Source of the DNA: a virus
Strand: one strand, 5' to 3'
IMG/VR virus record: IMGVR_UViG_3300007541_000276
Location: 1-21,414 of that record
DNA length: 21,414 bases
Part shown: piece by piece, positions 2,922 to 6,244 of the stretch
How positions within the stretch are numbered: position 1 is the stretch's first letter
How the letters are laid out: each line of letters begins with the position of its first letter
The notes under the pieces: model-generated
Database searches by the model: none
What the model was told of the DNA's origin: nothing
The model's input: only the letters and a program-made list of their open reading frames with translations
Made by a program: the position numbers and the translations under genes

Positions 2922-2923
2922 CA

Positions 2924-3020
2924 AAGTGGTAGTTAGACGAAAATGGAATTCCTGCTGTGAGGTTAACTTAATCAGCATATCCAGAAGTAGAAATGAGTAA
3001 TCGCAAGTTACTCGCCACTT
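2924..3020 (+). ncRNA. Candidate structured RNA directly after tRNA-Glu (three-way junction)
   Basis: A closing stem AAGTGGT (2924-2930) / GCCACTT (3014-3020) encloses two arms. The first is TGGA (2944-2947) / TCCA (2980-2983), continuing as TGCTG (2953-2957) / CAGCA (2973-2977). The second is the perfect hairpin GAGTAA-tcgcaag-TTACTC (2995-3013). There is no reading frame here. It lies on the tRNA transcript, so it could be a processed small RNA, a leader of the next gene or a processing signal. The junction strands do not match the hammerhead core. I recognise no family. Confidence 0.45.
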
Positions 3021-3027
3021 AATTTAA

Positions 3028-3079
3028 GAGAGTTTAAAAAGGGCCCTTCCCAATCGAGGGCATGCTGGGCCCGACTCTC
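3028..3079 (+). ncRNA. Candidate long imperfect hairpin downstream of the tRNA cluster
   Basis: Nested pairing is seen: GAGAGT (3028-3033) / ACTCTC (3074-3079), GGGCCC (3041-3046) / GGGCCC (3067-3072) and CCC (3049-3051) / GGG (3058-3060) around AATCGA. It is far more GC-rich than its surroundings. No T run follows, so it is not a standard intrinsic terminator. It could act as a 3' RNA-stabilising or processing structure for the tRNA transcript, or as a 5' leader of the gene at 3114. Confidence 0.45.
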
Positions 3080-3113
3080 GAAAATAAGTTAAAAAGATAT
3101 TTAGTACTTTAAT

Positions 3114-3542: not shown

Positions 3543-3600
3543 ACAATAATTTTTAAAAAAAGATTTGGTACTTTCAAAAGGTTATCTTATATTTATGAAG
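3543..3600 (+). promoter_or_regulatory. Bacteroidetes-type promoter for the noncoding RNA unit
   Basis: TTTG (3564-3567) and TATATTTA (3588-3595) have a 20-bp spacer, preceded by an A tract. From the -33 box to the -7 box it is almost the same sequence as the tRNA cluster 2 promoter (TACTTTCAAAAGGTTATC shared). The predicted start is about 3601. No convincing protein gene follows before the terminator at 4108. Confidence 0.88.
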
Positions 3601-3679
3601 TAATTAAGGCAAATATATAACCTTAAAATTTTCAATGAAAAATAAAGGTTTGGAAATTGACCTTAATATTTATTAATGA

Positions 3680-3755
3680 TACGGCGGGCGGATCGGTTGG
3701 CATCGAGGATAGTCTCATAAGCTATAAAAATGTGGTTCGATTCCACAGCGTCGCA
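3680..3755 (+). ncRNA. tRNA-like module with CAT-type loop and imperfect acceptor
   Basis: The T arm is perfect: TGTGG-TTCGATT-CCACA (3731-3747). The anticodon-like arm is ATAGT-CTCATAA-GCTAT (3709-3725), with the same loop as the genuine CAT tRNA at 1296. A D-like hairpin GAT-CGGTTGGC-ATC (3691-3704) holds the invariant GG. The acceptor region gives only CGGCG (3682-3686) / CGTCG (3749-3753) with mismatches on both sides, the linker from D arm to anticodon stem is 4 nt, and no CCA follows. This departs from the ten regular tRNAs nearby and suits a tRNA mimic or, less likely, a decayed initiator-like tRNA gene. Confidence 0.65.
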
Positions 3756-3759
3756 ACAA

Positions 3760-3771
3760 AGTTCTTTGATT
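3760..3771 (+). promoter_or_regulatory. boxA-like element inside the noncoding RNA unit
   Basis: AGTTCTTTGATT follows the tRNA-like module directly. It shares AGTTCTTTGA with the leaders of both tRNA clusters. It lies about 160 nt into the transcript, so an antitermination role is less clear than for the tRNA leaders; it also overlaps the TGATT/AATCA pairing. Confidence 0.35.
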
Positions 3772-4107
3772 ATTATCTGAAGCGGTTGTTAGAGTTACTT
3801 CAAACTATATACAATCAGAAAGGTGTTGGTACCGATCCCGCACCAAAAGTGACACGGTAACAGAATCACTTTAAAAGTCAGTACTCGGCCTTATGGACGG
3901 CTAGAAACGGGACTTCGACTCATTGGCGTAACCAATAATCCTTTAACAAAGGATTCTCAGATAGTAGTTAATGAATAAAAATATTTATCGGAGCGGCAGA
4001 GGGTGTTACTTCAAATTAGCCTATATTACACAGAAAACCCCACTCTCTTATTATTCCCGGTAATGATATTAAACTTCCACCTCTTTTGGTGTCTTTTATA
4101 TATCATG

Positions 4108-4136
4108 GGCCGGACTAACCTCCGGCCTTTTTTTTT
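4108..4136 (+). terminator. Strong intrinsic terminator closing the noncoding unit
   Basis: A 7-bp GC-rich stem GGCCGGA / TCCGGCC around CTAACC is followed by nine T residues. It is the strongest terminator in the window. The promoter of the Ro60 operon begins about 20 bp further on. Confidence 0.95.
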
Positions 4137-4154
4137 GAAAATTTTTTAAAAAGA

Positions 4155-4186
4155 TTTGGTACTTTGAAATGTTTTTCTTATCTTTA
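4155..4186 (+). promoter_or_regulatory. Bacteroidetes-type promoter of the Ro60 operon
   Basis: TTTG (4155-4158) and TATCTTTA (4179-4186) have a 20-bp spacer. The sequence from the -33 box to the -7 box is nearly identical to the tRNA cluster 1 promoter at 1048, including GGTACTTTGAAATGTTTTTC. Confidence 0.9.
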
Positions 4187-4206
4187 AGAGTATTAAAAAA
4201 TAAAAA

Positions 4207-4620
4207 ATGAAAAGACACCCAATTAGAAGATTGCAGGTTCGGTTTCGTAGATGGAGGAGATCGATTGAAAAAAAATTTACTCCATGGCCTAAAAATAGTG
4301 AAGTACAAGAATTAGCTATTGGGATAGTTAGACGTGCAATAAATTATGATAATTCAAATTTATTAATTGCGCCAATATCAGGAGATCGATATATTCATTA
4401 CAATGATATTTTTATTAAGTTAGAACATCAGCGTGTTACTATTATTAATGGCACGTATACATATGATATTATTATAACGTCTAATGATTCTGAAAGACTG
4501 CAAACTATGTTTAATGCACGTCTTGAGCGCACGAGAAAAGATTGGGAAGAGGCTATTAGATCTAAAACGGAACGTAGTTTAAAAAATATTTATAACGAAT
4601 TACTAATTAATACTAAATAA
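4207..4620 (+). CDS. Small protein with Arg-rich N-terminus, in operon with the Ro60 gene
   Basis: This 137-residue protein starts with a very basic stretch (ten Arg/Lys within residues 2-23). A beta-rich middle follows (about 50-95: SGDRYIHYND, IIITSNDS) and a charged helical C-terminus (about 97-135). No family is recognised. It follows a dedicated promoter and ends 7 bp before the Ro60-type gene, so the two are co-transcribed. The arginine-rich segment is typical of nucleic-acid binding and makes it a candidate RNA-binding partner of the Ro60 particle, but this is inferred only from composition and position. The start ATG at 4207 is preceded by an A-rich leader with no Shine-Dalgarno. Codon use resembles its neighbours. 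Confidence 0.8.
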   Translation: MKRHPIRRLQVRFRRWRRSIEKKFTPWPKNSEVQELAIGIVRRAINYDNSNLLIAPISGDRYIHYNDIFIKLEHQRVTIINGTYTYDIIITSNDSERLQTMFNARLERTRKDWEEAIRSKTERSLKNIYNELLINTK

Positions 4621-4627
4621 TAAAGTT

Positions 4628-6244
4628 ATGTCAACTCTATCAAAATTTGCAGACAAAACAACATCAACTGTTAGACAACATGAAGATGCTGTAGTAGAAA
4701 ACTTTATGGGAGGAAACTCTTATAAATTGAATTCGTTACAAACACTTAAAATTGTAGCTGCGTCTTCTATATTTGGAGAGCCTCAATATTACCGTGACGG
4801 TGTCAATGCGTCAAAGACAATTAAAAATCATTCTACGATTTTAGAGTATTCGATTCTAAATGATTTGCTTAATGATAAGCGTTCTGTTGCAGATGTATTT
4901 ACTGAAGCTATTGATAACGCACTTTCATATGACTTTCAAGGAACTTTGAATTTAGCATTAGAATTGCGAAAAGATTATTTTATGCGTCTTAATCCTGCAG
5001 TAATTTATGTACGTGCTACATTGCATAAAGGTCGTGCTGAATTTAATGAAGCTAACCCAGGCGTAATGAAATCGATTGGTAAGGCAATTGCTCCTAGACC
5101 AGATGACATTACAAACCAGTTTGAATACTTTATGTATGTAAACAAAACTAAAAACGGTATGCCGTCTTTGTTAAAACGTACTTGGGCTGATGCTTTAGAA
5201 TCATATTCACGCTATCAGTTAAATAAGTATAAAGGTAAACGTTTAATTGACTTAGTTCGTTTATCTCACGCTAATAATGCTGACATCAATGAATTGATGA
5301 AAACTGGAACTTTAGAAGTTGAAGACACTGAACAAACTTGGGAGACACTTCGCTCTGCCGGTAAAACTTGGAGTGAAATTCTAAAACAAATTCGAATGCC
5401 ACATATGGCATTGTTGCGAAACCTTCGAGGTATTTGTTCTGAAATTAATGGTGCGGAATTATCAAAAGTAATGGAGCAACTTAAATCAGGAGTAGTAGGC
5501 GGAAAGCAATTCCCATTCCGTTATTGGAGTGCTTATAAGGCTATCAAGAATGCAGACATTAACAATAAAAGTTTAGTTCTTGATACTTTAGAAGAGTGTC
5601 TAGACATTGCAGTAGCGAATATGCCTAAGTTAAGTGGTAAAGTAGCTTGTTTGTCAGACAACTCTGGTTCTGCTTGGGGTACTATGAATTCAGAATATGG
5701 GCATGTCACTGTAGCTGAAATTGCAAACTTATCTTCATTAATCACTGCGATGCAGGCAGATGAAGGATATGTTGGAGTATTTGGTGACCAGCTTTCATTA
5801 CAAGGAGTTTCTAAACGAAATGGATTGTTAACTCAATTAGATGAAACTTCTAACCGAGGCCGCAATCAAGGACAAGCTACTGAAAATGGAATTTGGCTAT
5901 TTTGGGATGATGCTATTACGAATAAAAAGCATTATGATACCGTATTTATCTATTCAGATATGCAGGCTGGTCATGGTCGTCTTTATGGTACCGATTCTTC
6001 AAAATATAAAGAGTTTATACATCAAGGTAGAGGTAGCTATATTGACGTCTTGGCATTGGTTGAAAAATATCGTAAGACAGTTAACCCAAAAGTCAATGTA
6101 TTTTCTGTGCAAGTTGCCGGATATGATAACTCAGTATTGCCAGAGAACCTATATAGAGGTGCTATATTAGCCGGCTGGACAGGTAAAGAGCCTGTATATG
6201 CAAAGGCTATTATTGACACTTGGAATCAAATAGAATCTAAGTAA
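4628..6244 (+). CDS. rsr: Ro60/TROVE-family RNA-binding protein (Rsr-like)
   Basis: At 538 residues it matches the usual length of Ro60 proteins. The N-terminal two thirds are helical-repeat (HEAT-like TROVE) sequence, with the family-like segments KYKGKRLIDLVRLSHANNA (200-218) and MPHMALLRNLRGI (257-269). The C-terminal third is a von Willebrand A domain: LSDNSGS (342-348) gives the MIDAS residues D344, S346 and S348, with a later YSDMQ (442-446). Known Ro60 proteins are rings that bind misfolded RNA ends in the central hole and Y RNA on the outer surface; in bacteria they guide exonucleases such as PNPase in rRNA maturation and stress RNA decay. The gene follows a small basic protein by 7 bp and lies downstream of a noncoding RNA unit with a tRNA-like fold. 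No RtcB/RtcA ligase or exonuclease is present in the window. Confidence 0.9.
   Translation: MSTLSKFADKTTSTVRQHEDAVVENFMGGNSYKLNSLQTLKIVAASSIFGEPQYYRDGVNASKTIKNHSTILEYSILNDLLNDKRSVADVFTEAIDNALSYDFQGTLNLALELRKDYFMRLNPAVIYVRATLHKGRAEFNEANPGVMKSIGKAIAPRPDDITNQFEYFMYVNKTKNGMPSLLKRTWADALESYSRYQLNKYKGKRLIDLVRLSHANNADINELMKTGTLEVEDTEQTWETLRSAGKTWSEILKQIRMPHMALLRNLRGICSEINGAELSKVMEQLKSGVVGGKQFPFRYWSAYKAIKNADINNKSLVLDTLEECLDIAVANMPKLSGKVACLSDNSGSAWGTMNSEYGHVTVAEIANLSSLITAMQADEGYVGVFGDQLSLQGVSKRNGLLTQLDETSNRGRNQGQATENGIWLFWDDAITNKKHYDTVFIYSDMQAGHGRLYGTDSSKYKEFIHQGRGSYIDVLALVEKYRKTVNPKVNVFSVQVAGYDNSVLPENLYRGAILAGWTGKEPVYAKAIIDTWNQIESK

What the first reader, a model, noticed from the sequence alone, without database searches (positions are those of the whole stretch)
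3543..6244. Phage Ro60 ribonucleoprotein locus with its own candidate Y RNA
A Ro60/TROVE gene (4628-6244) sits with a small Arg-rich protein directly downstream of a promoter-to-terminator noncoding unit containing a tRNA-like fold. Bacterial Ro60 partners are Y RNAs that often include a tRNA mimic, and they are usually encoded beside rsr. Together this suggests a complete viral Ro60/Y-RNA particle, possibly recruiting a host exonuclease to degrade or process host tRNA or rRNA, or protecting phage RNA under stress.
Basis: partly seen in the sequence, partly recalled or inferred. Interest (0 to 1): 0.9.

Follow-up and report, generated by a model that had tools for sequence, protein, structure and literature searches.

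The report
Phage Ro60 gene with Y-RNA array
This virus of bacteria carries a gene for the ring-shaped RNA-binding protein Ro60 next to a noncoding RNA made of two copies of a conserved folded unit; the same units, in arrays of one to about six, sit beside Ro60 genes in many distantly related phages, so it is very probably a viral Ro60/Y-RNA particle of a known general kind with an unusual tandem layout.

Summary
Observation confirmed, with a correction. ORF 4628-6244 is Ro60/TROVE (Pfam; predicted fold whose 12 significant PDB matches are all Ro60/TROVE; 53% identical to Bacillus phage G gp540). Upstream lies a noncoding stretch with its own promoter-like motif and terminator (~3605-4136). Comparison with 61 virus loci shows what it holds: two tandem modules (3767-3970 and 3985-4063), each P1 helix / internal loop (5' NGCGG, 3' AUUAUUC) / H2 helix / UUACUUC / insert. 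Both helices covary strongly. The module recurs 1-5 times within about 1.5 kb of Ro60 in 50 of 63 loci and is rare elsewhere. The order of parts is that of the bacterial Y RNA YrlA, and in several phages the insert is a circularly permuted tRNA, as in YrlA. The Arg-rich ORF is shared with one relative only. Phage Y RNAs beside Ro60 have been reported before (Chen 2014, not readable here), so this is a variant of a known kind. A Ro60-RNA particle is well supported; binding and exonuclease tethering are inference.

The parts
3564..3596 (+). promoter-like element of the noncoding RNA (TTTGGTACTTT and a downstream A+T-rich element)
   Evidence: motif 5 times in window, 0.04 expected; with the same spacing before 4207 and after Ro60. 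Function inferred
3605..4136 (+). noncoding RNA transcription unit; ends approximate
   Evidence: between promoter-like motif and terminator; fold z -3.0 for 3641-4136
3680..3757 (+). degenerate tRNA-like element (tRNA-Met, CAT), outside the modules
   Evidence: ARAGORN only at 50% threshold; no Rfam tRNA match up to E 5
3767..3970 (+). module U1: P1 3767-3780/3957-3970 (14 bp), 5' loop 3781-3785, H2 3786-3794/3941-3949 (9 bp), UUACUUC 3795-3801, insert 3802-3940, 3' loop 3950-3956
   Evidence: pairs; covariation in 18 relatives
3922..3936 (+). conserved hairpin inside the U1 insert (ATTGG/CCAAT)
   Evidence: 5 of 5 pairs with both-side changes in relatives
3985..4063 (+). module U2: P1 3985-3991/4057-4063 (7 bp), 5' loop 3992-3997, H2 3998-4005/4041-4048 (8 bp), UUACUUC 4006-4012, insert 4013-4040 without structure conserved, 3' loop 4049-4056
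   Evidence: pairs; covariation in 36 modules; model R1 67.8 bits (part of its training set)
4107..4136 (+). intrinsic terminator of the noncoding RNA
   Evidence: 8-pair G+C-rich stem and T-run
4155..4190 (+). promoter-like element before the small ORF and Ro60
   Evidence: same motif
4207..4620 (+). small basic ORF, 137 aa, unknown function; probably not part of the particle
   Evidence: only 1 of the related loci has it (L096, 45%)
4628..6244 (+). Ro60/TROVE protein, 538 aa
6252..6278 (+). terminator-like hairpin after Ro60

Best explanation
The locus encodes a viral Ro60 ribonucleoprotein: a Ro60 ring protein and, upstream, a ~530-nt noncoding RNA with two tandem Y-RNA-type modules. Shown: the protein's family and predicted fold; the module's two helices by covariation; its clustering beside Ro60 genes of many phages; a separate promoter-like motif and terminator. 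Inferred: each module docks on one Ro60 ring through P1, the internal loop and H2, as Y RNAs do, so one transcript could hold two rings. Inferred with less support: as reported for D. radiodurans Rsr, the RNA gates the ring and brings it to a partner RNA enzyme or to tRNA-like clients, so the particle acts in decay or quality control of structured RNA during infection. The insert is the exchangeable effector part: a permuted tRNA in some phages, another folded domain in U1 here, a plain loop in U2.
For: Ro60 identity. Modules: 132 in 72 loci against 12 on the opposite strand and 6 in shuffled DNA. Test with sequence-only anchors: P1 4.61 of 7 pairs against 3.46 +/- 0.10 with swapped partners, H2 6.79 of 9 against 5.99 +/- 0.08. 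Both-side changes 53 against 14.5 +/- 3.1 and 150 against 53 +/- 6.3. 50 of 63 loci have a module within about 1.5 kb of Ro60. Virus-contig pattern search: 24 of 30 contigs hit encode this Ro60. Actinophage Atuin, Ro60 about 25% identical, has modules on both sides of the gene. Permuted-tRNA inserts as in YrlA. Terminator between array and next ORF in 19 of 27 loci. Tether precedent: PMC7790460.
Against: No binding, expression or phenotype data for this phage. Rfam YrlA does not match the window. The window modules lack a tRNA mimic, which Chen 2014 (from memory) found in at least one Y RNA per species. No PNPase or other nuclease was identified as partner. Six contigs with the pattern show no Ro60, though they are fragments of 8.8-54 kb.
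Confidence: 0.72

Rival explanations
1. The modules are cis-acting leader elements by which Ro60 (or another protein) controls expression of the Ro60 gene, not a free noncoding RNA.
For: In most close relatives the array directly precedes Ro60; in 8 of 27 loci no terminator was found between array and next ORF.
Against: Promoter-like motif and terminator of its own here; terminator in 19 of 27 loci; array downstream of Ro60 in L031, L032, L035, L036 and on both sides in Atuin; further copies kilobases away in phage G.
Confidence: 0.1
2. The modules serve another protein or tRNA maturation (for example a processing signal in phage tRNA clusters), and lie near Ro60 because both belong to the tRNA region.
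For: Many of these loci have tRNA clusters, and some modules are joined to tRNAs or sit in an anticodon arm.
Against: Modules track Ro60 closely, also in loci where ARAGORN finds no tRNA (L002, L004, L006, L014), and gene neighbours other than Ro60 differ; the layout equals that of YrlA.
Confidence: 0.12
3. The RNA structure is a chance fold of A+T-rich intergenic DNA and the tRNA-like piece a decayed tRNA; Ro60 acts alone.
For: The tRNA-like piece is indeed degenerate.
Against: Covariation and recurrence in dozens of phages.
Confidence: 0.02

Closest known systems
YrlA, Rfam RF02553 (bacterial Y RNA with permuted tRNA mimic)
   Same: Order of parts: outer helix closed by GA/UC, asymmetric internal loop, second helix, distal domain; permuted tRNA in the distal position in some phage modules; encoded beside Ro60
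   Different: Loop letters differ (AUGC / AAACUUG in YrlA; NGCGG / AUUAUUC here); no match of the model to the window; no tRNA mimic in the window modules; two modules in one transcript
Deinococcus radiodurans Rsr-Y RNA-PNPase (RYPER), cited in PMC7790460 and PMC8058203
   Same: Ro60 protein of the same fold (2nvo); RNA partner encoded nearby
   Different: No PNPase link tested or seen; identity to 2nvo in the structural alignment 16%; tandem modules
Listeria phage CKA15 Ro60-like protein with upstream noncoding transcripts (PMC12282133)
   Same: Phage Ro60-like gene beside tRNAs and strongly transcribed noncoding regions; authors suggest Y RNAs
   Different: Model R1 finds no module in the related phage P100, nor does Pfam TROVE match there; its protein was detected in virions, unknown here
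Bacillus phage G gp540 and Thermus phage phiLo Ro60 (PDB 9l5y)
   Same: Phage Ro60 proteins; phage G carries the same modules, 5 or more beside gp540
   Different: phiLo locus not examined; phage G has an additional permuted-tRNA module

Membership tests
Ro60 / TROVE proteins | TROVE sequence family | tested here: met
   Pfam 31.9 bits, cut-off 23; profile of 27 relatives matches solved TROVE chains E 1.4e-30
Ro60 / TROVE proteins | HEAT-repeat ring plus von Willebrand A domain | tested here: met
   predicted model only; PDB matches at E <= 0.001 all Ro60/TROVE; DxSGS-type motif DNSGS invariant in 27 sequences
Y RNA (broad sense) | encoded next to a Ro60 gene | tested here: met
Y RNA (broad sense) | end helix with internal loop, second helix, distal domain | tested here: met
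   covariation of P1 and H2; order compared with the YrlA consensus
Y RNA (broad sense) | bound by Ro60 | not testable with these tools
   needs biochemistry
YrlA (RF02553) | match to the Rfam model at its gathering score of 69 bits | tested here: not met
   window RNA no match; best phage locus Olaya 50.0 bits
YrlA (RF02553) | circularly permuted tRNA mimic in the distal domain | tested here: not met
   U1 and U2 inserts have no T or D arm; met in phage G, L032 and Olaya
RYPER-type complex | Y RNA tethers Ro60 to PNPase | not testable with these tools
   host and partner unknown

The most novel reading that the evidence does not exclude
The RNA is a multi-site scaffold that assembles several Ro60 rings on one transcript, each site with an exchangeable effector domain (permuted tRNA, tRNA with the module in its anticodon arm, another folded domain, or a plain loop). 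Since the CKA15 Ro60-like protein was detected in purified virions, such particles might even enter the cell with the phage.
Probability: 0.25. Interest if true: 0.8.

Novelty: new variant of a known kind. Interest (0 to 1): 0.52.

Why it matters
What Ro60 and Y RNAs do for phages is unknown. A module defined by covariation and found beside Ro60 in phages of very different hosts gives a concrete RNA to test, suggests that the Ro60-side part is kept while the distal part is swapped, and would let phage Y RNAs that the current Rfam model misses be annotated, including in cultured phages (Bacillus phage G, Atuin, Olaya) where experiments are possible.

Tried and rejected
GAAG/CUUC hairpin: my first reading of the motif; rejected because the GA pairs with UC of UUCUC inside P1 and changes together with it (GG/CC, GT/AC, AA/TT). 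Intron in a tRNA: considered after L035 9161-9292; rejected because elsewhere intact or permuted tRNAs lie inside the module. ROOL, GOLLD and other Rfam RNAs: no match in the window. Module in cellular genomes: 49 exact hits of a shorter pattern, about 60 expected by my own estimate, and R1 gives at most 25 bits in 26 of those loci. Search for relatives of the SRB7757 protein found nothing. Deinococcus taeanensis Y RNA looks similar by eye (GCCCGG/CCGGGC, GCGGCGG/CCGCCGC, TTCCTTC) but neither R1 nor my finder recovered it, so it is not counted. Chen 2014 full text is not held.

Full report
What is there. The window is the whole held record, a virus contig of 21,414 bases; completeness is not known. 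ORF 4628-6244 is a Ro60 protein by sequence family, by profile match to solved TROVE chains and by predicted fold: every PDB match at E <= 0.001 is a Ro60/TROVE structure, among them frog, human, D. radiodurans and a Thermus phage protein. It is 53% identical to Bacillus phage G gp540 and up to 72% to proteins in 61 virus loci.

The RNA. Between 3543 and 4206 no credible gene is seen. A motif found five times in the window (0.04 expected) lies at 3564 and at 4155, and a terminator ends the stretch at 4107-4136, so the RNA looks like its own transcription unit. The tRNA-like fold at 3680-3757 exists but is poor: found only at a relaxed ARAGORN threshold, by no Rfam search, and not much more stable than shuffles (z -1.4).

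The conserved module. Little of the RNA aligned with relatives except a short motif. Following it showed a module: P1 - NGCGG - H2 - UUACUUC - insert - H2' - AUUAUUC - P1'. Scanning 72 loci gave 132 modules, against 12 on the opposite strand and 6 in shuffled DNA. Because that finder selects for pairing, I repeated the test with anchors chosen by sequence only: true partners pair clearly better than swapped ones, P1 4.61 against 3.46 +/- 0.10 and H2 6.79 against 5.99 +/- 0.08. RNAalifold recovered P1 without guidance. On alignments, both-side changes were 53 against 14.5 +/- 3.1 shuffled for U1-type modules and 150 against 53 +/- 6.3 for 36 short modules, with slid controls at 30-58. These rows are related to each other and were picked from finder output, so the sequence-only test and the slid controls carry most weight.

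In the window. U1 (3767-3970) has a 14-bp P1, a 9-bp H2 and a 139-nt insert; U2 (3985-4063) has 7 and 8 bp and a 28-nt insert. The U1 insert is a folded domain partly shared with relatives, with one covarying hairpin, but no T or D arm.

Link to Ro60. 50 of 63 loci have a module within about 1.5 kb of the gene, most within 500 nt, and 33 of them have 2 to 5. A pattern search of 2.9 million virus contigs hit 31 stretches on 30 contigs; 24 contigs encode this Ro60, and the other six are fragments without it, some with further module matches. In 11 whole records the model hits lie within about 10 kb of Ro60, except two weak ones some 100 kb away in G023. The array can be upstream, downstream or on both sides of the gene, which argues against a simple leader. 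Arthrobacter phage Atuin, whose Ro60 is about 25% identical, has two model hits, one on each side, and more by structure scan, six in all.

Kinship with Y RNAs. The Rfam YrlA consensus has the same order of parts, with a circularly permuted tRNA in the distal position. Modules of phage G (L062 1779) and L032 (7155) hold such permuted tRNAs, and Xanthomonas phage Olaya has RNAs upstream of its Ro60 that score 50.0 and 39.6 bits with YrlA and also carry UUACUUC. The reverse arrangement, a normal tRNA with the module in its anticodon arm, occurs in L035 9161-9292, and a tRNA with a similar insert in crAss001 (L163 3971-4114). The window RNA therefore belongs with Y RNAs in the broad sense, but it is not YrlA: the model does not match and the tRNA mimic is absent from both modules.

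What is known. Papers held here state that Y RNAs have been predicted in phages (PMC12282133, PMC7765460, citing Chen 2014 and Sim and Wolin 2018), that some jumbo phages encode TROVE proteins (PMC7824862), and that D. radiodurans Y RNA tethers Rsr to PNPase (PMC7790460). From memory, Chen 2014 reported likely Y RNAs near Ro60 in more than 250 bacterial and phage species. In Listeria phage CKA15 a Ro60-like protein was found in purified virions, with strongly transcribed noncoding regions within 2 kb (PMC12282133). The general idea is not new; the defined module, its tandem arrays and its exchangeable inserts may be, subject to reading Chen 2014.

Mechanism. Most likely the P1/loop/H2 part docks on the Ro60 ring and the insert sets what the particle does. 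Docking rests on co-occurrence and kinship; tethering and any effect on RNA decay are inference.

Noticed in passing
window 2923-3090: Structured noncoding stretch after the tRNA cluster, fold z -3.25, possibly another RNA.
   Followed up: no
L035 9161-9292: tRNA whose anticodon arm is replaced by a module in reverse order, P1 closed by a short loop.
   Followed up: partly
L163 3971-4114 (Bacteroides phage crAss001): tRNA with an insert of about 70 nt carrying a UUACUUC-type motif, in the 900-nt gap after the TROVE gene.
   Followed up: partly
L032 2881-3524: ROOL RNA, 284 bits, in a Ro60-module phage.
   Followed up: no
L166 1580-2294 (Xanthomonas phage Olaya): Tandem UUACUUC units with permuted tRNAs and a different loop (UGGUGUAG) upstream of Ro60.
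   Followed up: partly
L159 6557-7283 (Pseudomonas sp. FeN3W megaplasmid): Modules 2-3 kb downstream of a Ro60 gene 40% identical to the window's.
   Followed up: partly
G023 (record of L028) 184720-184888: Two weak module matches about 100 kb from Ro60.
   Followed up: no
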